From positions 4,499,529 through 4,563,528 of the forward strand of contig NC_031480.1 of the NCBI RefSeq assembly GCF_000006565.2: a stretch of DNA of 64,000 bases, written 5' to 3'. Position numbers and translations under genes: made by a program. Source of the stretch: Toxoplasma gondii ME49 (taxonomy: Eukaryota; Apicomplexa; Conoidasida; Eucoccidiorida; Sarcocystidae). Position 1 is the first letter of the stretch; the number at the start of each line of letters is the position of its first letter. The notes under the pieces are model-generated. The model saw only the letters and a program-made list of their open reading frames with translations. It made no database searches and was not told where the DNA came from. Below are positions 25,524-45,864 of this stretch, in pieces.

Positions 25524-27724
25524 CTCGAGAACGCGGTGTACTGACGCCGGAACCGCGACGCGTTGTGCAGGGGTTTGAAGCAAGTTGGAGCAGTGTTTTG
25601 AACGAGTGCGTCCGCGACGCCGTTCTCACTCCTGCAGCTTGCGGGGACGAGACAACGCAACGCGTGCGGAGAGAGCGTAAAACTCTCGAGTGGAAGAGAG
25701 GAAAACAGACCACGCGTCTGCATCGGTCTTTTCACACACGAATCTCTCGCGACACAAACTCCGCTTTCGAGAGAAGCGTCCGTCACACCTTGGACACCAG
25801 GCTCTTCAAGCAAACTCCTACCTCGTGTCCGGCAGTCCACAACTCTGCAACGGTGTTCGGATACGCGCGTCCGTGCCACGGCAACGCGAATCGGCGCGAG
25901 GAAACACAGGAGCAACAAACTCGCAAAAAAAACACCCCTGACGACTCTACTCGCGAACTGCAACGCCGTCTCAGAAACTGCAACGACGCCCTGCACCCGG
26001 TTCGGGCGACACTCGCCACGGGGACGGTGCCGCTTCGCAAGTCGAGCCTCCTCACCATTGCATTTGGGTTTTTTCGGGTTCCGCGCGGCCTATAAAACAT
26101 GCAGGTGTGGGCGCACCTTTTGCATGCAATACTGAGGGCGCACGTAGGCGTTGGAGGTCCGGTGTATCATTGGCATATTTTTCGAGTTCTGACACACCTG
26201 TCCGCGTTTCTCGGTAGTCTGCAGGACATTGTTCTGGAAAGATATGGAAAAAGAGCAAAACGCGGCGAGAACACGCCCCTCAGCCAGCGCCACCCTCTCA
26301 GTGGCAGTTGCGGAGCGTCTTCCACCCCACAGAGGAGTGTAGTAACCCATATGAGTGTTCCGACCCGTGCGTCCGCGGCAACGGGGCGCCTGTAGACAGA
26401 TTCACGCGGTTGATGTTTCGATAGCTCCAGTAGCAAACATAATTCCACGAGTCTATTGAAAGCTGATACTTTTTTTCGCGGTCGTACAAGCAGTCCGCGG
26501 GGGTAGTTGGGTACAGCAAGCATAAAGAACTTGGATGTGTGTCCCATGTAACTCGAGTCACGTTCAGTATCCAAGGTACTCCAAGGTACGATACTGTGCC
26601 TTTCAATGCCACTGGAAAGTTATACCGCACTGAATCGCAGCTTGTCGTTAGCGGTTGGGAGGTGGATTTTTCGGAGAGATAGTGAGTGCAACAGATAGCC
26701 TTTCACCTTAGTTGCACAAGGCCTACGGAGCGTAGCACTGGCCACCCCACTGATCTGGGGGGATGCAACGAAGTGAACTGTGTGCTGCTTTCGGCTTTCT
26801 GTGTCGGAGAGGGTTGCTGGGGACTATGAGTGAATGTTTTTAAGATAAACAGTTCGCAAGGGTTCTTCACAGACCATTCCGACGGTGTGTATTGATCCCG
26901 GGAGCCAACGAATCCACTTTGCGTGTGCCTCCTTTATCGGAGTTCAACTGCCGGTTAAGATGGAAGGGAAGACAGATGAGAGGAAAGAGAATTCCACTTG
27001 AGTACAGGGAATTCCGCACTTCATCATGGGAAATGCCCTTTGGCTCAAGTACACTGAGCACTCCCCTCTCCTCCCCCTTTCATCCGTTCCCTATTAAGGA
27101 ATCAAGCCACGGTTGCCACTTTGAAAGAAAAGGACCCTTCGTGTGAATTGAGGGATCCTTTGAAACACAGGTTAAGCGACGAAAAGGGGGAAAAGCTACG
27201 AATGTGGTAAGGACTTTGGGTGGGAACGCCAGCCGTTCGTAAAGAAGTTGGAATCCTCAGAACGAAACGTAAAAGGCGGACGTGCGTGTGGCACTTCGTT
27301 GAGTAGAAAGAGGGAGTGGTAGTCCGTCAGACACGCGTTTTCCATGATCTTTTGCGGGGGCACAGCGTACCACGTTAAACTTGCCCCCATAAGCATTTTC
27401 AGATGCACCTGTAAGACCATTCTCTCTACTTACACAGGTGTCGAAGTATATACTATACGTAAATGCTAGAGTGACAACCGCATTTCTTAAGAGTGCAATG
27501 GCCAGTGCAACTAAAAACTCTACATTAAGACCGTGCTTCTTTGGAGACAAGTTGCAAATCACTCTTCAGGTACCAAGTTCCTGCTAAAAATCTTTCGCGA
27601 CGTTTCCAATCAACTCTGGGTTCATAACGCCTCTAACAGTGATGGGAAGCAAGGATATAATTCGCTGTTTCGTAAGGCGTCGAACTGGGACGGGAAGAAA
27701 GGATACGACATGACAATTAAGGGA
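25524..27724. other. Gene-poor stretch entering the repeat region
   Basis: The first few hundred bases are probably promoter and leader of the minus-strand zinc finger gene. From about 26100 onward the sequence becomes less GC-rich and has only short open frames (up to about 110 codons) without motifs. I see no RNA gene or mobile-element terminus. Confidence 0.45.
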
Positions 27725-27836
27725 ACTGTCGTCTCTTCATTCGGAGGCAGAAGACCGCTACGATAAGCTCTGGAGTGCTTCTCTTATACACGAACTCCGT
27801 CACCTACGTTCAAGCAAGGCAAGAGGATACGAAGAC
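27725..27836 (+). repeat. Single copy of the ~132-bp satellite unit
   Basis: Bases with the order 'cattcggaggcagaagaccgc', 'acgataagctctgg' and 'cgtcacctacgtt' match, with substitutions, the consensus of the tandem array at 33245-34180. This degenerate unit sits directly in front of element X (left copy), just as the array sits in front of the right copy. Confidence 0.65.
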
Positions 27837-28280
27837 ACATATTCTGATAGTCGCCCAAATGGGCGTTTGCGATTCAAGCAATGTAAGAGCATACAAGGAA
27901 GGAAAAGGAACTTTCAGCAACGCCAAATGTTTATGGCATGTGCCGGTGACAATTGTTTCGTAAATCTCAAGAATCATCAAAGACATTGTCTGAAAAATAG
28001 CTCACATAAACGACGCTCGTCGGCTACGATCGAAAATGACTTCGCGTACCATCTCGTTTCCCCGCGCACCTACTCTTGTGCCATTAAAGGGTGTACGAAA
28101 TCCCCCGAAAAGCGCCCAGTGCAAATCGCGCCAACTCGTGGTAAAGCGATTTGGCCAGAAAGGAAGTTACCCGACCATGGAAAGGTCACGGCTTTGCTTA
28201 CAGAACGATTCGAAAGGAATAACCGTCATTTTCCTTGTATTACGAAGACTGTATGCGTCAAATGGATGGAAAAGGCTTTT
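27837..28280 (+). repeat. Element X, left copy
   Basis: About 440 bases alignable by eye with 34347-34790 at roughly 80-85% identity with small gaps; both begin with the same ACATATTCTGATAGTCGCCC. The left copy has an open frame of about 154 codons from ATG 27927 to 28391. The right copy is closed early by a stop and indels, and the Cys/His residues of the left frame are not conserved, so a protein role is doubtful. Confidence 0.75.
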
Positions 28281-28750
28281 GAGAAAGATGGCTTCGATTG
28301 CGGCCTATGCATCTGTGGCGGAGCGTGGCTGAGATTGCCCAAAAGGAACGGACGCTTGAGATTGAATAGATTGAGTCTGTCTTGGCTGTAGACAGGCTGC
28401 GGTCCAGACACGCAGGCACCACACAAACACCAAAATATGCAACACGCAAATTACAATAAACACTCACTGGCACATGTATGCAGGCACAGAACACACTTCA
28501 ACGCATATACACATCAGCAACTGACGAACACTGTCCCCTGTAAACAATCCACTACACGATCACGCATCTTTAAAGCGCATGATCGTCCCGTCTTCCGCAC
28601 AGGTATGAATCACGCACAGGCTGACGCATTGCAAGCGTGAAACTTTAAAGGTTTTTGCTGTGCATGCCCTCCGTAGGCGCGGAGGTCCGTCTCGGCACTG
28701 CGCTCTTCCCACTTTATCCGGAGGATGAGACGACGGTGACTTTGATACTG

Positions 28751-31014
28751 TCAATTTTCCTTTCTGAACGTGCCGTCTCCGTTGCTGTTCTGGGGGTCGC
28801 GTTGGTTTGTGGTGGGCATCTCGACACCCTCCCTCGGTTCCCCAGACACCTCCTTGCCCGGGGGGGGGGGGACTGGCGCCTGTGGAGGAGTGCTCGCGGT
28901 TGACTTCGTGTCCTTCTCGCTGATGCTTCTGCGCTGCGCGGAGCTCGAGTTGTTCGATCCCGTCGAACTCCCCAGGGAATGGCGCGGCACAATGAGTCTC
29001 GCGGCTCCACTGACAGCAGGAGCCTCTCGAGATCTCGCGCGCTGCCTCTCCATCGTGCCCTCCCAGAGACGCGGGAACACCGCGGGAGTCTCGCCGGACG
29101 CCTTCGGGCCTCGCGCTTGTTGCGCAAGAGGACGACTATTTCGACTTCGGCCGCAGGGCGGGGCTCCGACAACGCGGTCTCCAGGGAGGGGCTCGACGCT
29201 GGAGTCGCGAGTTTTGCTTCCGATACTCGCGCGGCTCAGGGCGCTGCTCGCGGAAGTCCACGAGGCTGCTCCCACGCTGGAGCGGCTTCTTGCTCCAACT
29301 CCCGACACCACGGTTTCCACCGTGGCCCTCGAGATGCCGCCAGCGGCCCAGAGTTTCGCGCGACTCGCGTTTGCCTTGAGGGGGGTGGCTCGGCGTTCCG
29401 CACAGGTCCCCTCTAGTCTCTTGCGTGCATTTCGAGACGGCGGGCGGGGCAAACAGCGTGCTAGCAACCGCGTCCTGAGGGGTCACAGCGCGTCAACAGA
29501 AGGTTCTGGTGATGCAGACAGAAAGCTAGAAACCAAGCAGCCTCGAAACGTCCGGTCCTTTTGCGCTGTGGCCTTGGGCGCTCGATCAACTGCCTCGGGT
29601 GCGAGCCACTCCGTAAACTGTCGAAGTTGCAGCCGCGTTCGAGTTGGCAGCAGACTTTGCTACAGGACTGAGACTGCTACGCGGACGGACCGAACCTAAA
29701 TCATTCGACCCTTCGAAATGTGTTTTCGCCTTCGAAGATGGGGGATACCGCATCGGCTTCGGCGTCTCGGTCTGAATATTCGCTTTCGGAGGATGTGGTT
29801 CCGCGGTCGAGGAAATTCTCTCCATCACGTCAGTCGGGAGAACTGCGGCTTCGAAGGCGAATCCTGTGGTTGTCATGTTCTCACTCAAAGCACGGTCTTC
29901 AATTTCGGGAGGAAAAGCCCTTCACCGGTGGAAAGCTGGTCGTGAGGCACCGTTGAGGCGGGCCTCGGCGGTCTCACCTCGGTGGTTTCCCTTATTTCCC
30001 ATTTGGCATTGGCCACTGGTGCGAATTCTGGCAGTTGGCTAAGTGGCTCCGGCTCGTCGATCCGTCCGATACTGCGGACTCGGCTGTCTTCGTGAAAAGG
30101 CGAAGTGACTCCTTCGCCGTCGGAATCTTGGGAGAGCTCGAAGCTGATTTCATCGTCTTGGTGGGGAGTTAGCTGTTCTTGAAAGACCATATACTCTTCC
30201 AAACTCGCACGACGGACCGTCTGTCCGACTTCTGTCATGTGGTGCACGCCGTTCGTAGCGCCACTTTCCAGTTGAGAATTTGCTGTGTCGGTGTGCTGTC
30301 CCAGCAGCAGCTGCGCGCGACTGATGCACGATGAGATCGACCTCGTGTTCTCGTTCAGCTGCGCTAGGACTTCCTCTGACAGGCGACTTGTATTGCTGAG
30401 AATGCTAGACGCGCTTTCGTTGCTCTGAGGAAAATTTGTATCCTCTGATGCGGCGCACGCTAGAGTTGCCAGCATACTGTCGCCGCCGTACGCGGTTTCG
30501 AAAGATTTGGTTGTCGCGGGGTCATCCATTGTGACACCGCCCCCGCTGCCGCCAGTTCTTGCTTCAGCGACGGTAGAGTGCGTCTCTCCATGCGGAGCAT
30601 CAGACAGGTCTCTTGTCTAACTCGAAGGATCTTGTTTGATTTACGCTACACCAGTAGTCCATGTCTGCTGTTGGTCTGGTATGTGTGCGCGTCTTCTGTT
30701 CCTCGAATTCCATTCCGCCTCAGGCGAGGCATCATTGCAGCGCTCGGCGATGTTGAAAGACGCTTGACCTCATGGTCCCGTTCGATGGAGAGGTGTCGAC
30801 GCCGGGGTTGCACAGAATGGCCCGTACCAGCTTGGAAGGGAGATGGCGAAGCGAACGCGAAAACGACGGTGAAAAGCGGATTCCCGGGAATTAGAAACTG
30901 TTCAGACTGAGATGGCGGACGTCCTCGTATTTGCCTCTTAAGATGAGTCAGACAGGGGGGTCGCGAGGTGGGTAGAGCTTGAAAGAAGTACAGGGGCGGA
31001 AAGTTGTTTGACAA
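28751..31014 (-). pseudogene. Degenerate copy of the unknown 1048-residue gene
   Basis: The minus-strand frame equivalent to the intact gene at 38317-41463 is broken here into at least three pieces in different frames: 30529-29885, 29888-29586 and 29467-28751. One break is a single-base loss near 30620 that produces an early stop. A second lies near 29900-29950, and the block matching about 39125-39855 of the intact copy is deleted. The initiator ATG of the intact copy (41463) is not preserved. The last ~50 codons, after SISEK, differ completely from the intact copy and run through a 12-G homopolymer (28860-28871) read as prolines. Stretches of the protein, such as the region around SFETAYGGDSM, remain almost identical to the intact copy. 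Function of the family is unknown. Confidence 0.8.
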
Positions 31015-33240
31015 TTGACGTAACCCCTTCTTCTGTTAAAGAGCTGCAGAGACGGTCACTCCCGGATGGAAAGGAAAATAAGAGGTTGTTAAAGAAAAGC
31101 ATCTTCGCGAGGACTTGTAAAGGAAGAGTCGGCGTGCTAGCTGACTTACACACTCTCGTTGGTAGGCGCCATCTCCCCCGAGTAGAGCAATTATTGAGGT
31201 AGAGACGCAAATTTGGGAAGCGAATGGATTTACCTAAAGACAGATTTCGTCTCTCTGTCTTTGAAGCCTTGAAATGCTCCTGAACAGCAACAGATTCTTC
31301 TGCTCAATGCCCTTTGTTCTAAAGGGCAGTCCTTGTTGTGTGCGCAAGTCGCTGTGCGAGTGCCTTCCAGTCCTCTGGGAGTACTTCAGCGCTTCCAAAA
31401 ACAAGTCTTTTAGCGGCTCCTAAACGAGTCGTCGTTCTCTGGATGACGGCTGTCTTTTCCCTGTACGCTCACACCTCAAAGGTTATATTTATAAAATTTT
31501 CTGGGCTACAGTTCACTGAAATTCGCCAAGTGCGAGCTCGTAGATACCTTTGTCTTTAGAAAGGTCAGATGGCTTCTTTTGCCCGCGGTGCTGAGGTCAT
31601 ACCAGGTGCCTACCGTGGACGCGACCAATGAGCAGAGATTACCCATGCACCCGCCGAGCACACCCTCCCAAGAAGCTATACAGTCTAGATAGTCAGGATG
31701 AGTATGCTCTCTGTCGCCATGCTCGTTCGCCTACGACAAACATGTTTCTGATTTGGCTATCTGTCGGACACACGAGTGTGCACGGGCACGGAAGGGCTCC
31801 GTGTCTTGGCGAGAGAAACTCACCAGACCTCTCACGCAGCATGGAGTGTACGGTAGCAGTCCTTCGTGGCCACCGCTATTCCGAATGCGCAGATTTCCCG
31901 GACGGCTATTGTTGCACTGAGAGTACGGGCAGCCTCTTTTCGTTAGTGCCGATTCTATGAGTACAAGAGAAAAACCCGAAGTTGTTCATGCTCTGTGACA
32001 GTGAGGCTGGTAGCCAGGTAACCGAATTATAAGTCGGACAGAAAGCACCAACTACTGTGTGTTAACCCCCCTTCGTCCCCACCGTAGAGCTGCAGACGGG
32101 CGAAACGCCTCTACAACGTTTTGACACATGAAATTAACCACAGGGGCAAACGCTGATTCTTGCTAGCTCGAGCACTAGAAGGCAACAGACGCCGTTTGAG
32201 AGATGGAACGATCTGCAGCCGTCTGCCTTTGGAATTAAGACAATATAAGCGCCACATGGGGGCAACACATGAGTGCAGCATACTTGAATAAATTGTATCG
32301 GTTTCTGGCTCTGTGTCGCGGAGGCGAGAGTCCTGTAAAACGCCTGTAGAGCGGGAACAGCAGATCCGGCACACTCTGAGATGAAACGTGCTTTGCTTCT
32401 GGAGATATTATTGCTTGTGCAGTCGGGGTACACTCTGGGTGATTATTTCCGGGTTGCCACCATTTGCTTGATTCCACTGGTAGGTGCCTAACACTACCAG
32501 GGATGCATGGCAAAATGAACTGGGAATGCGAGTGGAAGCAAATACAGGATACCCGAACCACCGTTTCAAAGTTTTGTGCAACACGCTTTTCGCATGACGA
32601 AGGAACGCCAGGTGCTGGATGCATTGCACATGGTCAAACAGCCAACAGTCTCGTATATATTAGGTACTGATAGTATTGCCAGTTCTACTTTGTGACAACA
32701 CGTTTTTTGTTGCCGGGAGAAAAGGTTCAAACGAACACGGAAAATAAATAAGGTAACAACTAAAGCTACAGAAGGTGGCTAGTTACTGGATGACCCTCGC
32801 GAGCCCGAATTTAGTCTCGATAAGCTACAGTTCTGCTTGATATTACACCGTTAGCTGTCATACTCACTCACGTGTGGTAGTGCCGTATACGGTACTTCTA
32901 ACGTTGAATCGACAACTGTGTGGTATCACATTGACAGTAGATTCTGTCTCTGTACGGAGGATTCGGTAACACTTTAGCGGGTGTTTGAAGGTCGTGTTGC
33001 CAACGAGACTCTTGGATAGCTCTGACGTCAAGGAGCTTTAATAACACTATGTATAGATAAATAAACGAGTATGGGGGTAACCTCGAATATACACTCCTCC
33101 ATTCACCAATGTCTTATTTTTGTTCCTTCCTGGCTGTTCAGAAGGTATTCCCAACAGATAAAGTTTGTCAAAGTTCACTGCAAGTGTTTCAACCAGTGGG
33201 AAAATTGCTACGTAGGGTGTAGCAGTGACATATTACAAAA
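31015..33240. other. Flank of the pseudogene inside unit Y
   Basis: No recognisable gene. From 31015 to about 31790 it aligns with 41640-42420 only loosely (about 75-80% by eye). From 31790 to 32760 it is nearly identical to 42420-43390. From 32760 to 33240 it is loosely similar again. Open frames of up to 129 codons on the minus strand in the conserved tract are shared by both copies but overlap in different frames and carry no motif. Confidence 0.6.
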
Positions 33241-33244
33241 GACT

Positions 33245-34180
33245 TCCATTCCCTGAAACTATCTTGTTTTCATTCGGTTACAGAGAACTGCTTGAATAGA
33301 CTTGAGTGTTTCTCCCGCCACATTTGGACTTCATTACCTGCATTGATGAGTGGTACAGGGATAGTTAGAAGAGACTTCCCCCCAGTGAAACTATCGTGTT
33401 CTCATTTGAATGCAGAGAACCTTTACGATGGGCCTTGGCGTCTCTCTAGCACGCAGTGACTCCGTCCCCTACGTTTGCATGTGGTCCAAGTGTACAATAG
33501 GAATGTCTTCTATCACTGAAACTATTGTGTTTTCTTGTGGACACAGAAAACCTCTAGGATAGCTTTTGCCGTTTGCGTAGCGATACGCTTATATCCCATG
33601 ATCTGCATTTGCAGGTGATCCAAGTACAGACCAGGAAGGGCCTTCCGTCACTATAAAATTATCGTGTTCTCGATCTGCTTTAGTGACCCGCCAGGATAGG
33701 CTTTGGCGTTTCTTCATCACCTCCAACTGACTCAATTACCTCCAGTTGCGGGTGATGCAAGGACGCATGAGAAAAGCTTTTGCAGAATTGGAATTATCGT
33801 GTTTTCTTCCGGATTCAGAGAGCCGCTAGGGTAGGTTTTGGTGTTTTCTCCAACACACCCGGACTCCATTACCTACATTTGCTGGTAGCATGACACATTG
33901 GGATAGCCGTTCCGTCAGTAAAACTATAGCGTTACCCCTCGAATGTAGAGAACCACCAGGATAAGCTTTGGGGACAGTTTAACACATCCTATGTCCACTA
34001 CCTGCAGTTTTTTCTGGTGGTACGACACGCTAGAACAAACCTGCTTTCACTGAAACTATTGTCTTTTCACTCGGATGCAGAGGGCCGCTACGGTAAGATC
34101 TTGCCCCTCTCTAAACTACACATTCCGTTGCCTACATTCGTAGGTGGTAGAAGGACATACTCGAAAACACTTGTCATCTC
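33245..34180 (+). repeat. Degenerate ~132-bp tandem repeat, seven units
   Basis: Units begin at a GAAACTATCGTGTT-like core at about 33255, 33387, 33518, 33654, 33791, 33921 and 34052, giving spacings of 130-137 bases. Within each unit the order is: core, TTCGGATGCAGAGAACC, CGCTAGGATAGG, TTTGGCGTTTCTC, a CACC/ACACA stretch, ACTCCATTACCTACATT, then TGCAGGTGGT. Units differ at many positions, so the array is old. It carries no open frame of note. Confidence 0.85.
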
Positions 34181-34346
34181 TAAGGCTTGCCCCCTGACTG
34201 CCACAAAAGCTGTGTTCCTCACTCTGAAACGAAGGCCTGCCCTGCTCGAACACTAAAGGACCTCCACGTGCGACCGATGAAGGCTTTTCTTTGCTGAGAC
34301 ATACGTGAGTTAATATATGCCGGTTCAGAGTTTTAGGGAACGAAGA

Positions 34347-34790
34347 CATATTCTGATAGTCGCCCAAATTGGCGTTTGCGATTCAACCAATGTAATAGCA
34401 TACACGGAAGGAAAAGGAACTTTCAGCAACGCCAAAAGTTTATGACATGCGCTGGAGACAATGGTTTCATAAACTCAAGCATCTTCCGAAAAATAACTCA
34501 TGAGCGACGCTCGTCGGTTACGAGCGAAAATGACTTCGCATATCATCTCGTTTCCCAGCGCTCCTAATTTATCTGTCATTCATGGGCGTACGAAATCCCC
34601 CGAAAAGCGTCCAGAACAATCGCGCCAACGCGTGGTAAAACGATCTGGCCAAAAGGGAGTTACTCGACCATGGAAAGGTTACGGCTTTGATTGCAAAACG
34701 ACTCGCAAGGAATGACCGTCATTTTCTATTTATTCCAAATACGCTGTAAGTCAAATGGATGGAAAAAGCTCTTGATTCACATATGTACAG
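34347..34790 (+). repeat. Element X, right copy
   Basis: Partner of 27837-28280 in the same orientation, downstream of the satellite array. Similarity stops near 34780-34790, after which the sequence unique to the right copy (the Pro/Gln-rich gene and its flank) begins and runs to about 38030. Confidence 0.75.
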
Positions 34791-35656
34791 GATTAAAAAT
34801 GGTAATAATTTAAAAAGCGATACACAAATGATCAGCTATTTGGAAGCGTTATCCTAAAGAACAATACAAGAAGACTTCAAAACGGTACAACCGCGTAATG
34901 CCTTCCTGTTTGCAGAGTTCATCTAGTTGCTTTTGCAGGCTTCACCGCTTTTCTTCACACGAGCGTTGCCCATATTTCAAGGTCCCTGGCTTCCACGTCC
35001 TGTGTTTTTGCATAACATGTTCTTCTATTTTCGCTTCTGCCCCCTTTGCTGCCTTCTTCAAGCATTTCCCAGAAACAGCGCGTCTTGGTAATGTGCAGAC
35101 ACGCGGAGGCCAGAGACTCGTTCCCTTTCTCGAATCACGATCCAGAGAGGATGGCCTAAAAAACGGTTTCACCGACTGGATGCAAGGACGTAAGACCCGA
35201 AATGACTACGGGGGGTTTTCACTAGTTGGCAGAACACACACAAGCGTAATTTTGTAAAAGGACTCTCGAAACACCAAGCAAAATCAGCAAGCGGCCACAA
35301 GCCAGAACTGGTCATTCATACTACTTCAAACGCCCAAAACACGAAGGTTTCTCTTATTCCATACATGAGTTTCCCGAAAAGATGAAACGATGCAGACGGA
35401 CTTGGGTAAAGCACCACTACACAACTGCTCACCAGAGCAGTGGAACATGAGTCGCACGGAACTTTTTTTCGAGAACAGCATTCTGTATGATTTCCTTTTT
35501 TCATATATATACATATATATACATCTACGCTTGCCTAGTCAGTAAGAAAATACAGAAAACTCGACAACACAGCTGCCTTTGATGAGGCATGCAGAGACTG
35601 TCGTTTAAAGCTTAAGTACGCCTACCTTCACGACAACGCAAGACAGCATTCGACTC
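34791..35656. other. Probable 3' flank of the Pro/Gln-rich gene
   Basis: Relatively A/T-rich, with only short open frames and a small TA run at 35505-35525. It lies downstream of a minus-strand stop codon and may hold its 3' untranslated region. Nothing else is seen. Confidence 0.45.
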
Positions 35657-37957
35657 CTACAGTAAAAATTGAGGTTCAGCGGCAGAAATTCCTCCACCAG
35701 TCGTCGCGCTACCAGACATTTTCTGATTCACCATCTCTCTTGCGCATGGAATCCCGCATGTCGATCCGTGACTTTTTACCGGCTTTGTGCGCACAAACGG
35801 ATTTTGTGCCATGAGAGTTCTTTGCAGCGCGGATCCGGCTTGAATATCTGCTAGTCCGGAAGGACCACAGACATAGACATTTGCATGACGGGACTCCGTG
35901 CCGCATTTGGTGGCATTCCTTTTGTCATCTCCGGAGGGTCCTCCAACTTTGAACAGCATCGTGCCACTCATTGTCGGCTGCGCACCTGCAGGCCTTGCAC
36001 CGGAGTAGTGTTGCTGCCTGTGATTATTCTCATTGTGGATCCCGGCTGAAGAAAGTAATGTGGCCGTCTTCGTGGGCAGAACACGTTGCGCCATTGGTTG
36101 CAGTTTGGCTCCGAACGGGACTGTCACAGGGAGAGGGAATTTACGCGAGATAGCCCCACCAGGTCGAGCACCTAGAGCGGGTTCGAACTCTGTCTCCGTC
36201 CTTTCGCGACAAACGCGGCCATTCTCTTCGACAATTGTGATGGCTAGCGCTTCTTCGGCCTCGGGCCACCCCCAAGCGATTTCATTCTCCTGTTCCGGTT
36301 GAGGCCGTATTAGTGCTTGGCATGTCACTTGCTCTTCAGGTGTCTTCTGACTCGACCCACCTGCTTCATTCGCGTGCGATAACTGCGAGAACGAGAAAGC
36401 AGGAGTGGGGACGGGCGTGGCAGGTGCTCCCGACTCGACCGGTATCGTTTCTTGGTTCGAATCCTCATGCACCAGAGACGCATTTACGCTGGGTGAAGTC
36501 ACCGCGAGGGGTGGGCACGTGGCGAAAGAAAACGAATGAGGAATCGCCTGGGTGTGTTGTGTTTGTTGTGGAACGGCCGCTTCGTCATTGGCTTGGAAAA
36601 CACCTTCCTTCGGAGTCGAAATCGGCGTGGTGGAAAGTTGAGTCGCTGTGAAAGGTTTGACACATACAGAAGGCGCAGGGATAACGAACGGCTTTGCGCT
36701 CGCGGCTTCGCTGCTGTGACCTAAGGAGTGACCTTGTTGCGACTGGGATTGCTGCCACTGCGCGACTTGGAGCTTCCACGCTTCTTGCCATAGTTCTTGG
36801 CGAGACTTGTCTTTTCGATTTCCACTTGATTCGACGCATGCAGACATGCTCTGTGACGAGTGCATTTCTCCCTGTGTCTCCTTAACTTCGACTACGGAGG
36901 GTGCTTCGCCTTTGTCTGTCTTCGGGAGTGGCGCACCTTCTCCAACTGGGTTCTTATCCACAACTTCGGCGTGTCGAATTGAAGTCCTTCCGCTCTTTGT
37001 GCGCACAAAAGGCACGCCTGTGCGTGGAGGTGTTGCCTGTCTTTTGCCTGGCAAACTCGCAGATGGCTGTTTCTCTGGGACAAGGCGAGGAATGGGGCGA
37101 GACTCAATGTGGAGGTTGCTGATGCAGAGTGAAGACAGACCCACTGTCGGGTCCTCTTTCATCATTCGACTGTCCGTGGGCTTGACTTCGCAAACCGCTT
37201 CGGCCTTTCCATCTGGAGTCTTCAGTTCATTCTGGCTAGCCGGAAGGTTTGTTGGATGCTGCGGTGTACGCAGACCTTCTCTATGGGCGGTGCAAAATCT
37301 CTCGACTCCGCGTTCTGGAGTCTCGCTCGCAGGTTGGGCTGCTTGCGGAGTGTAGAAGATGGCAGGAGACGCACCCGCTCCAGGCCCCTGGGGAAACGGC
37401 ACTGGAACGAACTGAGACTGCACCGGAGGTGGCCCGAAAAATTGGTGGAATGGGGGCGTCGTAGACGTCTGAAGTTGTTGTAACGTCATTCCAGCATTCT
37501 GGAAATATTGCTGCGGTGGCATGGACGATGTCTGGAATTTCTGCTGTGGCGACATTCCAGCATTCTCAAATTGTCGTACTGGTGGCGTCGACGAAGTTTG
37601 AAATTGTTGGTAGACAGGGTTGAATGCAGACGTATTTGCAAGCATGGAGGGATTGGGTGGTGGAGAGCGCGCACGAGGATTCGGCGTCATGTAGGGCACG
37701 GGGTTGGTGCCATTGCTGGGGCGGAGACCGAAGGGCACTCCTGGAGGAGGAACTGGCAGTGCATAGCCTGGTTGACCGGCAGAGTTGAGTGCAACGTGGT
37801 GGTTCGCGACGCGCAGAGGATCGATCGGAATGCTTTGGAACGGCGGAGAGATTGGAGGCAAGGCAACTGGAAGCGGAACATTTTGATTCACATTCATCTG
37901 GAAACTCTGGTTGAGACTCCACTGGTCTTGCGAAGCTAGTGGTTGCTGCCCGTGCAT
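35657..37957 (-). CDS. Unknown Pro/Gln/Ser-rich protein
   Basis: An uninterrupted frame of about 766 codons from the ATG at 37957; the frame continues upstream to about 38071 without another ATG, and an acceptor-like CTGTCTACAG near 38031-38040 leaves room for a 5' exon. I do not recognise a family. Residues 1-200 are rich in Pro, Gln, Asn and Phe. They contain three imperfect repeats built on FQTSS.PP and F.NAGM..QQ (about 37440-37620), interspersed with PP-rich linkers. The hexapeptide PFVRTK occurs twice, once mid-protein (about 37000) and once near the C-terminus (about 35790). A lone WGWPEAEEAL segment is acidic. No membrane span or signal peptide is evident. The composition suggests a largely disordered scaffold- or RNA-associated protein, but this is inference only. 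The gene sits inside the right duplication copy and has no counterpart in the left one. Confidence 0.7.
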   Translation of the reverse strand: MHGQQPLASQDQWSLNQSFQMNVNQNVPLPVALPPISPPFQSIPIDPLRVANHHVALNSAGQPGYALPVPPPGVPFGLRPSNGTNPVPYMTPNPRARSPPPNPSMLANTSAFNPVYQQFQTSSTPPVRQFENAGMSPQQKFQTSSMPPQQYFQNAGMTLQQLQTSTTPPFHQFFGPPPVQSQFVPVPFPQGPGAGASPAIFYTPQAAQPASETPERGVERFCTAHREGLRTPQHPTNLPASQNELKTPDGKAEAVCEVKPTDSRMMKEDPTVGLSSLCISNLHIESRPIPRLVPEKQPSASLPGKRQATPPRTGVPFVRTKSGRTSIRHAEVVDKNPVGEGAPLPKTDKGEAPSVVEVKETQGEMHSSQSMSACVESSGNRKDKSRQELWQEAWKLQVAQWQQSQSQQGHSLGHSSEAASAKPFVIPAPSVCVKPFTATQLSTTPISTPKEGVFQANDEAAVPQQTQHTQAIPHSFSFATCPPLAVTSPSVNASLVHEDSNQETIPVESGAPATPVPTPAFSFSQLSHANEAGGSSQKTPEEQVTCQALIRPQPEQENEIAWGWPEAEEALAITIVEENGRVCRERTETEFEPALGARPGGAISRKFPLPVTVPFGAKLQPMAQRVLPTKTATLLSSAGIHNENNHRQQHYSGARPAGAQPTMSGTMLFKVGGPSGDDKRNATKCGTESRHANVYVCGPSGLADIQAGSALQRTLMAQNPFVRTKPVKSHGSTCGIPCAREMVNQKMSGSATTGGGISAAEPQFLL

Positions 37958-38316
37958 TGGTGGGGGAAACTGCGGCTGAGAATGCCATAACGAAGCAGTC
38001 GCCGGAGACTGAAACGGGTGACCCTGACCTGACTGTAGACAGACAGCAGTCTGGACACGCAGACACCACACTGAAACGCAATAATCTTACAACACGCAAA
38101 TGATCTTGAAAGGCGCATGCGGACACAGAACGCCCTTCACTGAGGCAAGTGCACCACTGGCCAGTGAATGAAATTTACTACAAGACATGCTTCTAATGGG
38201 CACGCTCTCCTCTGTCTCTTGTCCCTGAGCACATCGCGAAAATGTCTGCACACTCCAATTGTAAAACACGGAAGGTTTCTGCTTCGCATACCCACTGTAG
38301 ACACAAGAGTCGGTCT

Positions 38317-41300
38317 CTACACAGGACACTCATGGTCCACTCCAACGAAAAACATGGCAGACGCTCGGAAACTGACCGGTCTCTTTCCTTGTGGACAAGG
38401 CGTCTGCGTCGCCGTTCTGGGGGACGCGTTGAGCTTTGCCGACGGGCCGCCTGTCTGCGGACGCCTTGGCCCCTCTTCAGCTCCCAAGACACCTTGACCG
38501 GAGCGGACTAGCGCGCGCGCTGGAGTTTTCCCGTTTTTCTCGCTGATGCTTCTGCGCTGTGCGGAGCTCGAGTTGTTCGATCCCGTCGAACTCCCCAGGG
38601 AATGGCGCGGCACAATGAGTCTCGCGGCTCCACTGACAGCAGGAGCATCTCGAGATCTCGCGCGCTGCCTCTCCATCGCGCCCTCCCAGAGACGCTGGAA
38701 CACCGCGGGAGTCTCGCCGGACGCCTTCGGGCCTCGCGCTTGTTGCGCAAGAGGACGACTATTTCGACTTCGGCCGCGGGGCGGGGCTCCGACAACGCGG
38801 TCTCCAGGGAGGGGCTCGACGCTGGAGTCGCGAGTTTTGCTTCCGATACTCGCGCGGCTCAGGGCACTGCTCGCGGAAGTCCACGAGGCTGCTCCCACGC
38901 TGGAGCGGCTTCTTGCTCCAACTCCCGACACCACGGTTTCCACCGTGGCCCTCGAGATGCCGCCAGCGGCCCAGAGTTTCGCGCGACTCGCGTTTGCCTT
39001 GAGGGGGGTGGCTCTGCGTCCTGCGCACGTTCCGAAAAGTCTCCTCGTTTCCGTCTCTTGCATGCGACTTGACACGGTCGGCTGGGCGAAACCCTTGCTG
39101 GCGATCGCCGCCCAAGACGCGTCCGCTTGGCTACAGAAGGTGCAAAGGCTCTTGTACCTGAGTCCGTGGGGGCACAACAGACGGCTGTTGCTCCGCAACT
39201 GTCCTGGTAACATCGAGCCGATCGAGCTTCGTCCCCTCGTTCCGGAGGCCCGCGGCGCAGGCGTGAGAGTGCGAAGACTGGTCTGGTTTTCGGACAGGCT
39301 TCGCCGCAAGTGCCGGTTCTGTTGGGGGCGGGGGTTCGTGGCCGAGCCAAGGCGGCTGCGTGCGCACAGGGAAAACCGTCGAGGAAGGCTCTGGTGCTTT
39401 CGCGAAGCAGAGCGCGGGGCCACTCCCGAATTTCCGGCTGCCGTCTCGTTCTGGAAGACACCCTTCTGCGCGCCCGCGACGCCTCGACCCGCAAAATTGC
39501 TGCTACGACTAGATGCACCGGATGACCCCGCCAAACTCCGCTCTGAAGTTTTTCCGCAGGCGCGCCGGATGGCTTCGACAGCTTGCCGAATTGTCGTCCC
39601 GCTGGTCAGCACGATCCGCTGTTGGTGGAGAATCTCCACGATTTTTTCCCGAGCGGCCGCGGGCAATTCGGTCCAGGATGGACTGCGAGTCGGCGACGAG
39701 CTGTTCGCCGCGGCAGCTCCGGTGATCTGCTTAATCAGTTCCGCGGCTGAGACGCGACTCGCAACTGCGGGGGAACACGACTGCCGAGAATGCACGGTGG
39801 GTTTCGGCTGAGAGGTTCCTGTCGGGGCACTTCCGAGCTGAGTGTGAGGATGCGGTGTCTTTCTGTCTGGTGATGTGGACAGAACGCTGGAAACCGAGCG
39901 GCCTCGCGCGGCTGGTCCTTTTGCACTGCGGTCTTGTGCTTTCGTTGCATTGCCTCCTGTGCGAGTGACTCCGCGAGTTGCCGAAGTTGAGGCCGCGTCC
40001 GAGTCGGCAGCAGACTTCGCTGCAAGACAGGAACGGCCACAAGGACGGATTGAACCGGAATCTTTTGACTTTTCGAGCTGTGTCTTGTTCTTCGGTGTCT
40101 TGATCGGGTGTCTTTGCTTTGACGTCTCAAGCTGCGTCTTCGATTTTGGCGATCCCGGGGGTTGTTTCACCGTCGAAGAAATTCTCTTTACCGCGGGGGT
40201 CGGGACAGGTGCGCCTGCGCCGGGGAATCCGCTGGCTGTCGTGTGGTCCTTCCGAGGGCGATTTTCACTCTCGTCAAGAGGAAATTCATCACCGGTGGAA
40301 ACCTGGTCGCGAGGCACCGTTGAGGCGGGCCTCGGCGGTCTCACCTTGGTGGCTTCCCTTATTTCCCATTTGGCATTGGCCACTGGTGCAAATTCTGGCG
40401 GTTGGCTAAGTGGCTCCGGCTCGTCGATCGGTCCGATACTGCGGACTCGGCTGTCTTCGTGAAGAGGCGAAGTGACTCCTTCGCCGTCGGAATCTTGGGA
40501 GAGCTCGAAGCTGATTTCATCGTCGTCTTGGTGGGGAGTTAGCTGTTCTTGAAAGACCATATACTCCTCCAAACTCGCACGACGGACCGTCTGTCCGACT
40601 TCTGTCATGTGGTGCACGCCGTTCGTAGCGCCACTTTCCAGTTGAGAATTTGCTGTGTCGGTGAGCTGTCCCAGCAGCAGCTGCGCGCGACTGATGCACG
40701 ATGAGATCGACCTCGTGTTCTCGTTCAGCTGCGCTAGGACTTCTTCTGACAGGCGACTTGTATTGCTGAGAATGCTAGACGCGCTTTCGTTGCTCTGAGG
40801 AAAATTTGTATCCTCTGATGCGGCGCACGCTAGAGTTGCCAGCATACTGTCGCCGCCGTACGCGGTTTCGAAAGATTCGGCTGTCGCGGGGTCATCCGTT
40901 GTGACGGCACCCGCGCTGCCGCCAGTTCTTCCTTCAGAGATGGTGGAGTGTGTCTCGCCACGCAGAGGATTAGACAAGTCTCCCTCGTCTAATTCTGGAG
41001 ATCTGGCTTGATTTACGCTACACCAGTAGTCCATGTCTGATGTTGCACTGGTCTGTGCGCGCGTCTGCTGTTCCTCGAATTCCGTTCCGCCTGCTTCGGA
41101 CTCATCATCGTCGACGTGGGAGCTGTTGTATTTTGAGGTCAAGGCGTCGCTGCCGCACTCGGCAAAGTCGAAGGCCACTTGGTCTGCGTCATCTTTTTGC
41201 ATCGTGTCCTCGCCTAAATTCACAAATGTGGTGTCAATGTCGGCTTCGATTGGAACAGCCACCTTTTTCACACGCCACACGACGGCCGGACTTTTCGGCG

Positions 41301-41463
41301 ACTCTTTTGCCGTCCTCGAGCTTTCATTTTCTCCTGCGTTGAGGTCGCTGGTTCCCGGCCGCCTAGCCATTCCTTCTGGGCAAATTGACAAGCAACTACT
41401 TCCGGAGGTCCCCTTCCGTGGAGGGGAGTCCACGCCCGGGTTCCCGGCAAAAATATGGGCCAT
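38317..41463 (-). CDS. Unknown Ser/Arg/Ala-rich protein, intact copy
   Basis: An open frame of about 1048 codons from the ATG at 41463. The frame extends a further 61 codons upstream without an ATG, and that stretch (FLIVGNPLCTVVFAF) is also recognisable in the left copy, so a spliced 5' exon is possible. No known family is recognised. Residues 1-400 are acidic and Ser/Thr-rich, with segments such as DSDGEGVTSP. A helical-looking stretch lies near residue 600 (AAAREKIVEILHQQRIV). A Cys/His cluster CPHGLRYKSLCTFC lies at about 39139-39180 and could bind zinc. The rest is basic and Ser/Ala-rich. There is no signal peptide and no membrane span. A frame this long in DNA whose sister copy is riddled with frameshifts argues that the protein is, or was recently, under selection. 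Confidence 0.7.
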   Translation of the reverse strand: MAHIFAGNPGVDSPPRKGTSGSSCLSICPEGMARRPGTSDLNAGENESSRTAKESPKSPAVVWRVKKVAVPIEADIDTTFVNLGEDTMQKDDADQVAFDFAECGSDALTSKYNSSHVDDDESEAGGTEFEEQQTRAQTSATSDMDYWCSVNQARSPELDEGDLSNPLRGETHSTISEGRTGGSAGAVTTDDPATAESFETAYGGDSMLATLACAASEDTNFPQSNESASSILSNTSRLSEEVLAQLNENTRSISSCISRAQLLLGQLTDTANSQLESGATNGVHHMTEVGQTVRRASLEEYMVFQEQLTPHQDDDEISFELSQDSDGEGVTSPLHEDSRVRSIGPIDEPEPLSQPPEFAPVANAKWEIREATKVRPPRPASTVPRDQVSTGDEFPLDESENRPRKDHTTASGFPGAGAPVPTPAVKRISSTVKQPPGSPKSKTQLETSKQRHPIKTPKNKTQLEKSKDSGSIRPCGRSCLAAKSAADSDAASTSATRGVTRTGGNATKAQDRSAKGPAARGRSVSSVLSTSPDRKTPHPHTQLGSAPTGTSQPKPTVHSRQSCSPAVASRVSAAELIKQITGAAAANSSSPTRSPSWTELPAAAREKIVEILHQQRIVLTSGTTIRQAVEAIRRACGKTSERSLAGSSGASSRSSNFAGRGVAGAQKGVFQNETAAGNSGVAPRSASRKHQSLPRRFSLCARSRLGSATNPRPQQNRHLRRSLSENQTSLRTLTPAPRASGTRGRSSIGSMLPGQLRSNSRLLCPHGLRYKSLCTFCSQADASWAAIASKGFAQPTVSSRMQETETRRLFGTCAGRRATPLKANASRAKLWAAGGISRATVETVVSGVGARSRSSVGAASWTSASSALSRASIGSKTRDSSVEPLPGDRVVGAPPRGRSRNSRPLAQQARGPKASGETPAVFQRLWEGAMERQRARSRDAPAVSGAARLIVPRHSLGSSTGSNNSSSAQRRSISEKNGKTPARALVRSGQGVLGAEEGPRRPQTGGPSAKLNASPRTATQTPCPQGKRPVSFRASAMFFVGVDHECPV

Positions 41464-43860
41464 AGGAGCAGCTTGAAAGAGAGAAAGGGAATCGAACGCG
41501 AATACGACTGTGCAGAGCGGATTTCCCACAATTAGAAACGAATCGGAGCTAGATTGTGGCCTCAGTTGCCTCTTCCAGGGTAAGCCAGACACGGGGTCGC
41601 GCGGTGGGTGGAGCTTGAGGGAGTTCAGGGGCGAAATATCACTCAACGTTTGGTAGAATGACTTCTCCCGCCAAGCAATGTCGGAAGACGGTCAATCCCA
41701 ATAGGCAAGAGAAGCAGAGAGGTCGTTAAGAAAAGCTTCTTCGATGGGACTTGTAAAGCGGCGAGCCGGCGTGCTAGCTGACTTTGACACGCTAGGTGGT
41801 AGGGACCACCTGCGCGTGATGCAATTCTCAGGGTAAAGTCGCTTTTTCGGGAAGTGGAGGGAATCACTTGGAAAGGGAATTCGCCTTGCTGTCTTTGAAA
41901 TCTTCAGACGCTCCGGAATAACAACAGATTCTCTTACTCGATGTTCTCATGCGGAGTCCTTGTTGTGCGCACAAGTCGCTTGACGGAGTCTTCGCGTCCT
42001 CTGGGGGGCTGTGCGCTGTTCCAGCGTTTCGAGAATCAAGCCTTTCAGCAGCTTTAGAACGAGTTCGTTCGCTGGACGACGGCTGTCTTTTACCTGTACG
42101 CTCACTCCTTAAAATCTGGATTTCTCTAATTTTCTGGGATATGGTTCTCTTAAATTCGCAACTGCGAGCTCGTAGATACTTTTACCTTCAGAAATGTCAG
42201 ATGGAATCTTTTGCCCGCGCCGCTGGGTTCACACCCCGTGCCTACCGTGGAGGCGACCGTGAGCAGAGTCAACCCATCCACCAGCAGACCATACCCTGCT
42301 GAAAGAGATGCGGTCTGTCTTGCCAGGATGAGCGTGCTCTGCATGACCATGCACGTTTGCCTGTGAGAAACAAATCTCTGGCTCAGCTTTCTAGCTGTTA
42401 GACACACGATTGTGCAAGAGCACGGAAGAGCTCCGTGTCTTGGCGAGAGAAACTCACTAGACCTCTCACGCAGCATGGAGTGTACGGTAGCAGTCCTTCG
42501 TGGCCACCGCTATTCCGAATGCGCAGATTTCCCGGACGGCTATTGTTGCACTGAGAGTACGGGCAGCCTTTTTTCGTTAGTGCCGATTCTATGAGGACAA
42601 GAGAAAAACCCGTAGTTGTTCATGCTCTGTGACAGTGAGGCTGGTAGCCAGGTAACCGAATTATAAGTCGGACAGAAAGCACCAACTACTGTGTGTTAAC
42701 CCCCCTTCGTCCCCACCGTAGAGCTGCAGACGGGCGAAACGCCTCTACAACGTTTTGACACATGAAATTAACCACAGGGGCAAACGCTGATTCTTGCTAG
42801 CTCGAGCACTAGAAGGCAACAGACGCCGTTTGAGAGATGGAACGATCTGCAGCCGTCTGCCTTTGGAATTAAGACAATATAAGCGCCACATGGGGGCAAC
42901 ACATGAGTGCAGCATACTTGAATAAATTGTATCGGTTTCTGGCTCTGTGTCGCGGAGGCGAGAGTCCTGTAAAACGCCTGTAGAGCGGGAACAGCAGATC
43001 CGGCACACTCTGAGATGAAACGTGCTTTGCTTCTGGAGATATTATCCCTTGTGCAGTCGGGGTACACTCTGGGTGATTATTTCCGGGTTGCCACCATTTG
43101 CTTGATTCCACTGGTAGGTGCCTAACACTACCAGTGATGCATGGCAAAATGAACAGGGAATGCGAGTGGAAGCAAATACAGGATACCCGAACCACCGTTT
43201 CAAAGTTTTGTGCAACACGCTTTTCGCATGACGAAGGAACGCCAGGTGCTGGATGCATTGCACATGGTCAAACAGCCAACAGTCTCGTATATATTAGGTA
43301 CTGATAGTATTGCCAGTTCTACTTTGTGACAACACGTTTTTTGTTGCCGGGAGAAAAGGTTCAAACGAACACGGAAAATAAATAAGATAACAACTAAAGC
43401 TACAGAAGGTGGCTAGTTACTGGTTGACACTTACGCGCCCGACTTTAGTCTCGACCAGTTTTGTTTAATATTTCACTGTTAGTTGTCGTAATTTCATGGG
43501 ATGGTGGCGTACGGCAGTTCTGTGTACGTTGAGACGACAACCAGGCATTACCCCATTAACAGTATGTATAGTTTCTGAACGGAAGGATGGTTAACACTAA
43601 ATTGGGGTTCAGAGGTCATTTCCCCACTGATATACTTCGATAGCTGGTGGCAAGGAGATTCCCTGAACACCGTGCAAGACGATAGCAAAGCTCCTCCGAA
43701 TACTCTCAAATATACACACCTTCTTTCACCAGTACGACATTTGGTTCCCCGAGGGTTATTCGGAAAGTACTTCGCATGAAGAGAGTCTGTGAGACTCCAT
43801 CGAAAGTGGGTCGGCTACAGAGAGCCTAGCCACGTATACTGTGGCAGTATCACACATGGC
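41464..43860. other. Upstream flank of the unknown gene
   Basis: Probable promoter and leader for the minus-strand gene, followed by unit-Y sequence with no recognisable gene. The tract 42420-43390 is a near-perfect copy of 31790-32760. Confidence 0.5.
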
Positions 43861-45864
43861 CTATGGAACGTTCAAGTTTCCATTCTCAGATAAGTTATAA
43901 CCCAGCACCCTGGATGTTGTGTTGTGATCCTGAGTGTCCAATTTGTTGCAGCTAGACGGCAAAGACGACGTATTTCCTCTATCAGTTAATGGCCTGCATC
44001 CCCAGTAGTAGAAATCCTTTCGGTACTCTGTGCAACGTGACTCCGAAACATATTTCTCCATTCACCTCCGACTTTTCCTTCGTGGACAGGAAGAGCGTCC
44101 ACTGCGCGCTAGAACTACTGTCAGAGAAGCCTACACGTTCGTTTGTTCTGATTACTTTCATGCTAAGAGGCATGCCTGTATCGTCAGCAACGGCGATCAT
44201 TGGCCTCGTATCGCAGAGAAGATGTAGGCACTGTTATAACGACTAAGACGCGTAACGTGATCTTTGACCACGGCTTACCAAGCCACAGCCGCACTATCAC
44301 TCTAGGAGTCGTTACGTGCAATACAGCAAACGATGGATTTTCGGGGCTACCAAATTACCTCACCGTCGGCCGGCAAAACATCCTCTCATCTGCACTTCAG
44401 AGAAGCACCTCCTCACCAAAAAGTTCAAGACTTCGACAGAAAAAACAAAGCGTGACGAAACAACAGTCTGTAGCAAGACGGTTACCTTTCTTGATGCGCC
44501 TCGCTTAACTCGTCTGATAACGTGATAGACAAGCGCAGATGAGTCAACAAGAACTAATGCCGTTTTGTGAACGAAATTTCACCATGAAAAAAGTAATATC
44601 TACAGAATACGGTTCCCCATGATCATGTATCTTCTTCATTAGGGAGAGAGAAGTACAAAGAATGGCGGAGGCGGACCGAGACAGGCTAACGGATCTGCAA
44701 CTGGAAAACCGAGGTCTTCGCACGGAATAGACGCGCCAGACGCTGCCAGACCAATTTCTCGGCTAAGTGTTTCTTTCTCCTCCCCCTTGAGGACAAAAGC
44801 AGCAAATTCTGAAGCCACTTGGCCACCTCCCCGTGACCAACCTCGCTCCCCTTTCTCAGGAGCAACTGCCGTGAACATGCAGCTCATATCAGGCTCTGTC
44901 ACGAAAGGGAAGGAAAATCGTCCTAGAACCTCAAGAGACCCTTCACTGTCGTAACTGTGTTCATTTCCCTCTTGGCGTCCTTGCCAAACATCGCGAGGCC
45001 CTTTACGCAGTGGAACAGTAATCACCTGAACGCCGAAGGTGACAAACCCTTTCAAGAATGTTCTAACCCTGAAGGGACGTGCATGGCAGCGAGTCCCGTG
45101 TCACGAATGGGAAAACGTATTCAGTGAGCATGCTATCACACAGATCTAAGCTGCTCCAGGTGTGTCACCGAGTCCTTTAAAAAAACCCCGTTATGCGGTC
45201 TATATAAATGACTGTTCACTATTTTACAAGACATCCATGCAGGAGCGTGTTCCGTAGTGTCGGTACGTTGAGTGAAACTCTCTTTTTCTGCCTCAAAGGT
45301 AATTTAATCTAAAACGTGAAGCAGCGCCACGGGAGACGGCGGACAAGCTTTTACGCAGGCCGACGTCACTGGCTAAACGTCTGTCTGTCATATGGAAGCA
45401 AAACTACGGAACAACCCGCGACAGGAGCACAGTCGAGGACTAGGCTCAACTTTCTACTCAAGGGACCTCTCCAAGTCAACATCCCGCCCGTCCGAGACTT
45501 TCCATCAAAGTTTAATATCGCAAAAAGAAGTTCAAGGCGTAGGCAGGAAAAGCTACTTCGACCCATCGCATGACCTTAACTCAAGCGGATCCTCTACCAT
45601 ATCTACAGAACTGGGAGAGAGTCTGTGTCTGGGCCATCACAGCATCGCTACCCTTGTTTGTTGTGGTCACGAGAATGAGCCGCTGGCATGCGCTTTTTCT
45701 TTTAACGGCAGTCTCCAAGAGAGACACCGAGTAGTGTACCTTTTCTCTACTACTAAGTGAAGCGTGCGATCGCGTGTTCCCGACGCGCACCGCGCTTCCG
45801 GAGAGCGCCTACGGCTGACGGCCCGTCGAGGTGTCTCTACACCGGACCCCGCTGTCCTTCTACC
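43861..45864. other. Unassigned region right of the duplication
   Basis: No clear gene. One minus-strand frame, 44639-45055, is open for 138 codons with an ATG only at 44887. Its balanced composition (for example SEFAAFVLKGEEKE) looks more protein-like than its surroundings and could be a terminal exon, but I cannot connect it to a start or a family. Confidence 0.4.

What the first reader, a model, noticed from the sequence alone, without database searches (positions are those of the whole stretch)
27725..43860. Tandem duplication of a satellite-X-Y block, with a whole gene present in only one copy
The order is one satellite unit, X, Y in the left copy, then seven satellite units, X, a unique ~3.2-kb segment, Y in the right copy. 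X (27837/34347) and Y (28375/38030) pairs are collinear and in the same orientation. The unique segment holds an intact ~766-codon gene. Either a gene was inserted into the right copy or it was deleted from the left one. This is a compact case of gene presence/absence inside a segmental duplication.
Basis: seen in the sequence. Interest (0 to 1): 0.75.

Follow-up and report, generated by a model that had tools for sequence, protein, structure and literature searches.

The report
Gene beside its patchily overwritten pseudogene
A Toxoplasma gene sits next to an old, broken duplicate of itself; the 'extra gene' seen in one copy is that gene's own second half, and parts of the broken copy appear to have been overwritten from the intact one, which is an ordinary kind of event.

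Summary
The window has a collinear, same-orientation tandem duplication (left from 27829 to between 33038 and 33240; right from 34340 to between 43660 and 43860), with one partial ~132-bp satellite unit before the left copy and seven between the copies. The stretch 34776-37942 has no left counterpart. But its 766-codon ORF is not a separate gene: it is most of exon 2 of a two-exon gene whose exon 1 is the neighbouring 1048-codon ORF. One 1789-aa T. gondii protein matches both, across a GT-AG intron. Hammondia, Neospora and Besnoitia proteins match both halves, so the stretch is ancestral and was lost from the left copy, a truncated pseudogene. By its Hammondia orthologue's number the gene is AC12 (249440), a daughter-bud apical-cap protein. 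In the two coding tracts the left copy shares T. gondii residues that differ from Hammondia at 37 of 42 sites. This indicates gene conversion, gene to pseudogene, after the split from Hammondia.

The parts
27722..27829 (+). single partial satellite unit in front of the left copy
   Evidence: nhmmer profile of the seven other units, E 2.8e-13
27829..28282 (+). X, left: matches the DNA downstream (3') of the right-hand gene
   Evidence: 83% to 34340-34775
28283..30720 (-). left pseudogene body: about 1884 of 2994 nt of exon 1 and about 90 of 2376 nt of exon 2 have a counterpart; indels and one codon-aligned stop in the unconverted coding stretches examined
28914..29391 (.). conversion tract T1, left (partner 38537-39014)
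   Evidence: 472/478 identical
29922..30507 (.). conversion tract T2, left (partner 40289-40877)
   Evidence: 575/586 identical plus one 3-nt gap
30774..33240 (.). left counterpart of the gene's upstream region; blast match ends at 33038, similarity fades by 33240
31796..32789 (.). near-identical tract T3, left, upstream of the coding region (partner 42430-43423)
   Evidence: 985/994 identical, no gap
33255..34183 (+). array of seven ~132-bp satellite units between the copies
34340..34775 (+). X, right: 3' flank of the intact gene
34776..37942 (.). 3.17-kb segment without left counterpart: most of exon 2 and about 0.9 kb of DNA 3' of it
35657..38032 (-). exon 2 of the intact gene (AC12/249440 by orthologue number); the reported 766-codon ORF 35657-37957 is most of it
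   Evidence: P0001 residues 999-1789 match 38032-35660 at 99.7%
38033..38376 (-). 344-nt GT-AG intron
   Evidence: donor GTCAGT, acceptor CTACAG, both exons in phase
38377..41370 (-). exon 1 as in the VEG protein; an in-frame ATG at 41463 aligns with residue 1 of the Neospora protein
   Evidence: P0001 residues 1-998; P0003 residue 1 at 41463
38537..39014 (.). T1, right (inferred donor)
40289..40877 (.). T2, right (inferred donor)
42430..43423 (.). T3, right; direction not determined

Best explanation
An ancestral two-exon coccidian gene (by its Hammondia orthologue's number AC12/249440), with its upstream region, 3' flank and adjoining satellite, was duplicated in tandem. The right copy stayed intact. 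The left copy became an unprocessed pseudogene: it lost most of exon 2 with the 3' end (3.17 kb), a net 0.74 kb inside exon 1 and a net 0.26 kb around the annotated start, and gained frame-shifting indels. After T. gondii split from Hammondia, parts of the left copy were overwritten from the right by interlocus gene conversion, seen today as three tracts: two in exon 1 and one 1-2 kb upstream of the annotated start. Shown here: the duplication, the two-exon gene model, the missing segments, the mosaic, and the shared T. gondii residues. Inferred: loss rather than gain, direction in T1 and T2, and that T3 arose in the same way.
For: One T. gondii protein (P0001, 1789 aa) covers both ORFs at 99.7% identity, with an in-phase GT-AG intron. 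Hammondia, Neospora and Besnoitia proteins match both halves. The left copy keeps the start of exon 2 and the 3' flank on either side of the missing 3.17 kb. Mosaic: T1 472/478, T2 575/586, T3 985/994 of ungapped columns, against the seven low stretches 288/336, 420/565, 13/19, 293/409, 182/212, 767/984 and 298/421. The longest identical run is 432 in 4103 ungapped columns (three of the five aligned segments); the highest of 2000 shuffles was 104. Where the right copy differs from Hammondia, the left copy sides with the right at 16 of 16 sites in T1 and 21 of 26 in T2 (2 like Hammondia, 3 neither). Where Hammondia and Neospora agree against T. gondii, the left copy has the T. gondii residue at 3 of 3 sites in T1 and 7 of 9 in T2 (one Hammondia-like, one neither). 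Direction: the right copy is as close to Hammondia inside the tracts (144/160, 171/197) as elsewhere (exon-1 parts from 137/164 to 258/277; exon 2 646/718). No stop and no frame-shifting gap lies in the left copy inside T1 or T2, while two unconverted coding stretches (140 and 71 codons) hold 8 and 3 indels and one stop.
Against: No second strain and no Hammondia or Neospora DNA could be compared: age and conversion rest on one assembly and on proteins. T3 has no outgroup. The divergence of T1, T2 and T3 does not differ significantly (p 0.25), so one patchy event cannot be told from three. Three of the 12 residue differences between the copies in T1 and T2, all near one edge of T2 (residues 342, 354, 357), carry a Hammondia or Neospora residue in the left copy, so that edge is blurred. 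Two of the 8 indels in the longer unconverted stretch are 3 nt long, and all indel counts depend on the alignment. Most of the intron has no blast-level counterpart on the left. The gene number is taken from the name of the Hammondia orthologue, not from the T. gondii record.
Confidence: 0.88

Rival explanations
1. A complete gene was inserted into the right copy, for example by retroposition.
For: The segment contains a long uninterrupted ORF and has no left counterpart.
Against: The ORF continues in phase across a GT-AG intron into exon 1 and lies within residues 999-1789 of one protein whose relatives in three other genera match both halves. No other copy of the segment was found among the scored candidates in the genome.
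Confidence: 0.02
2. The near-identical tracts are an assembly artefact: reads of one copy used to build parts of the other.
For: The tracts are short (0.5-1.0 kb), repeats of this size can be mixed up, and only one assembly was seen.
Against: Each tract carries its own differences (6, 11 and 9 substitutions) and is flanked by diverged sequence. The window has no N.
Confidence: 0.07
3. The tracts are near-identical because selection conserves them in both copies, not because of conversion.
For: T1 and T2 are coding in the intact copy.
Against: T3 is 99.1% identical with no ORF of 150 aa or more and no Rfam match at the curated thresholds. The broken left copy is closer to the right copy (residue differences at 4 of 158 and 8 of 195 codons) than the Hammondia protein is (16 of 160 and 26 of 197).
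Confidence: 0.03

Closest known systems
Unprocessed (duplicated) pseudogene beside its parent gene, with interlocus gene conversion from parent to pseudogene (general kind, recalled)
   Same: Tandem copy with flanking DNA, large deletions, and patches of near identity in a diverged background
   Different: Nothing essential found; three separate tracts in one small locus are the notable point
Gene conversion at the tandem SRS19 surface-antigen locus of T. gondii and N. caninum (PMC3310773, passages read)
   Same: Same organisms; tandem copies evolving in concert
   Different: There a multigene surface-antigen family, inferred from trees in which genes group by species; here a single gene and a broken copy, seen as bounded tracts

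Membership tests
Unprocessed duplicated pseudogene | derived by DNA duplication, keeping flanking and intron DNA | tested here: met
   5' upstream, 3' flank and the acceptor end of the intron have blast-level left counterparts; the rest of the intron only a weak collinear alignment
Unprocessed duplicated pseudogene | disabled coding sequence | tested here: met
   three right-hand stretches without left match; indels and one stop in the two unconverted coding stretches examined
Unprocessed duplicated pseudogene | no functional product | tested here: inconclusive
   the left 214-aa ORF has no match at E<=0.001 among 230 candidates of eligible length; longer or shorter annotated products would be missed; expression not testable
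Interlocus gene conversion | tracts of near identity with sharp edges in a diverged background, beyond chance | tested here: met
   0 of 2000 shuffles reach the longest identical run
Interlocus gene conversion | paralogues in one species more alike than orthologues in the tracts | tested here: met
   left/right residue differences 4 of 158 codons (T1) and 8 of 195 (T2); right/Hammondia 16 of 160 and 26 of 197; T3 not testable
Interlocus gene conversion | same copies unconverted, or converted to another extent, in other strains or species | not testable with these tools
   no other Toxoplasma or Hammondia DNA was available to me
Retrogene or other inserted gene | self-contained gene absent from the ancestral locus | tested here: not met
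   segment is an exon whose protein sequence continues the same protein in three other genera
AC12 (TGGT1_249440) | orthologue of the gene so named | tested here: inconclusive
   the Hammondia match is named HHA_249440; that ToxoDB orthologues share numbers is recalled

The most novel reading that the evidence does not exclude
The left copy is not merely decaying: conversion has kept its upstream region (T3) and two exon-1 modules current, so that it is transcribed with the AC12 cell-cycle programme and its RNA or a short peptide acts on AC12.
Probability: 0.04. Interest if true: 0.5.

Novelty: new member of a known kind. Interest (0 to 1): 0.25.

Why it matters
It removes a spurious 'gene presence/absence' case and gives a clear natural example of gene-to-pseudogene conversion in an apicomplexan. 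In practice, 2058 bp of the AC12 locus (T1-T3) has a 98-99% identical second copy about 10 kb away, so short reads, probes or guides placed there may not be specific to AC12 (inference; no published reads or guides were examined).

Tried and rejected
Separate-gene reading: the 766-aa ORF has no Pfam match up to E 1 and no homologue at E<=0.001 among 7989 scored candidates. The latter is explained by the search's length limit, which shuts out the 1789-aa full protein; with the neighbouring ORF (4 proteins at E<=0.001 among 7990 candidates) resolved it.

Structural RNA as the cause of T3's identity: no Rfam match at the curated thresholds in 26000-46000.

Satellite on all sides of the duplication, as expected for exchange between satellite units: no unit found after the right copy (E 7.7), so that mechanism is not supported. 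The left unit is 0.49-0.63 alike to the seven array units, highest to the last one but not clearly so.

Satellite elsewhere in the genome: a DNA search with the array found only itself. With units 53-67% alike this would miss diverged copies; it also did not list the known partial unit at 27722-27829.

Reverse conversion (left to right) as the source of two of the five residues (456, 458) in which the window differs from VEG: the left copy carries the VEG/Hammondia state there, so rejected. The other three were not checked against the left copy.

A 97-bp piece at the start of X (93/97) was also called high by the segmentation; it is too short to build on.

Papers: '249440' with Toxoplasma gave 14 papers; I read passages in three: two concern this gene, one is an antibody number; the other 11 were seen as a listing only. 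'AC12' with apical cap and Toxoplasma gave three papers, of which two more were read in passages. Searches on gene conversion, pseudogenes, tandem or segmental duplication and concerted evolution in Toxoplasma (355 papers of which 20 were listed, 10 listed, 12 listed) showed no title or abstract start on this locus; only PMC3310773 of these was opened, in passages. Subscription papers and supplements were not searched.

Full report
Observation. The duplication described is real and its coordinates are good. Whole-window self-comparison gives six rows, five of which form a collinear same-strand series between 27829-33038 and 34340-43660. A profile of the seven satellite units at 33255-34183 finds an eighth, partial unit at 27723-27829 directly before the left copy (E 2.8e-13). 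The seven match the profile by construction, so only the eighth is a test. Searches of the window's own genome (65.3 Mb, 1959 contigs, unnamed) find no further copy of the block; these searches score only the best candidates.

The 'extra gene'. The 766-codon ORF (35657-37957, minus) found no homologue, but that search admits only proteins up to 1.75 times the query's length. The adjoining 1048-codon ORF (38317-41463, minus) found four proteins: T. gondii VEG (1789 aa), Hammondia hammondi HHA_249440 (1783), Neospora caninum (1797) and Besnoitia besnoiti (1759). Mapped back by tblastn, residues 1-998 of the T. gondii protein lie at 41370-38377 and residues 999-1789 at 38032-35660, each at 99.7% identity; the three other proteins likewise match both places. 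The 344-nt interval begins GTCAGT and ends CTACAG on the coding strand, both exons are in phase, and the joined frame has only its final stop. The ORF is therefore most of exon 2 of the duplicated gene.

Identity of the gene. From the orthologue's number the gene is 249440. [quoted passage not shown] It stands in a protein table of the PPKL study (PMC10746186, passage read). The AC12 promoter is reported to be bound by AP2XII-9 (PMC11481911, passages read). A preprint lists AC12 among proteins enriched by RCC1-2 proximity labelling (PMC12918799, passage read). The shared-number convention is recalled, not tested.

The left copy. About 1884 of 2994 nt of exon 1 and about 90 of 2376 nt of exon 2 have a counterpart (coordinate sums). 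Without a blast match on the left are R 34776-37942 (3167 bp, 15 bp in its place), 39034-39865 (832 bp, 94 bp in its place) and 41093-41406 (314 bp, 53 bp in its place). The two unconverted coding stretches that I examined hold 8 indels and one codon-aligned stop (140 codons) and 3 indels (71 codons); the coding stretch 38377-38536 was not examined in this way. It is a duplicated pseudogene. Because both sides of the 3.17-kb gap survive on the left, and the exon is conserved in three other genera, loss from the left copy is the economical reading.

The mosaic. A two-state segmentation of the piecewise alignment (identities fixed beforehand at 0.985 and 0.72) finds T1 (472/478), T2 (575/586) and T3 (985/994), and a 97-bp piece of X (93/97). 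The seven low stretches are 288/336, 420/565, 13/19, 293/409, 182/212, 767/984 and 298/421 of ungapped columns, together 2261/2946. Across 4103 ungapped columns of three of the five segments the longest identical run is 432; the largest in 2000 shuffles is 104. In T1 all 16 residues at which the right copy differs from Hammondia are shared by the left copy; in T2, 21 of 26. So the left copy's tracts come from a T. gondii-lineage sequence, later than the split from Hammondia. The right copy shows no loss of similarity to Hammondia in the tracts, so it was the donor. Of the 12 residue differences between the copies in T1 and T2, the right copy agrees with Hammondia at 7, the left at 2, neither at 3. 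T3 lacks an outgroup, and the three tracts do not differ significantly in divergence (p 0.25).

How it arose. Tandem duplication of a unit made of satellite, 3' flank, gene and upstream region fits the order, since the end of the left copy (between 33038 and 33240) runs into the array that precedes the right copy. Whether satellite units took part in the exchange is not shown: none is found beyond the right copy. The background divergence of 14-32% suggests a duplication older than the split from Hammondia, but without neutral DNA from Hammondia this is inference.

Verdict. A correct and well-placed observation with a mistaken headline. What is there is an old tandem duplicate, one copy intact, the other a pseudogene that appears refreshed in patches by gene conversion: known kinds of event, in a clean example with a practical warning for work on AC12.

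Noticed in passing
window 41371-41463: The VEG and Hammondia proteins start at 41370, but an in-frame ATG at 41463 aligns with residue 1 of the Neospora protein; the T. gondii model may be 31 codons short.
   Followed up: partly
window 33255-34183 and 27722-27829: A ~132-bp satellite with units only 53-67% alike; a DNA search of the genome with the array found only itself, a test that would miss diverged copies.
   Followed up: partly
window 37476-37605: Two 64-nt direct copies 72% alike inside exon 2; the Hammondia protein is shorter in this part.
   Followed up: no
P0002, residues 203-336: The Hammondia protein holds a tandem repeat of 67 residues (66 of 67 identical) that is single in the T. 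gondii protein; real or an assembly effect is not known.
   Followed up: partly
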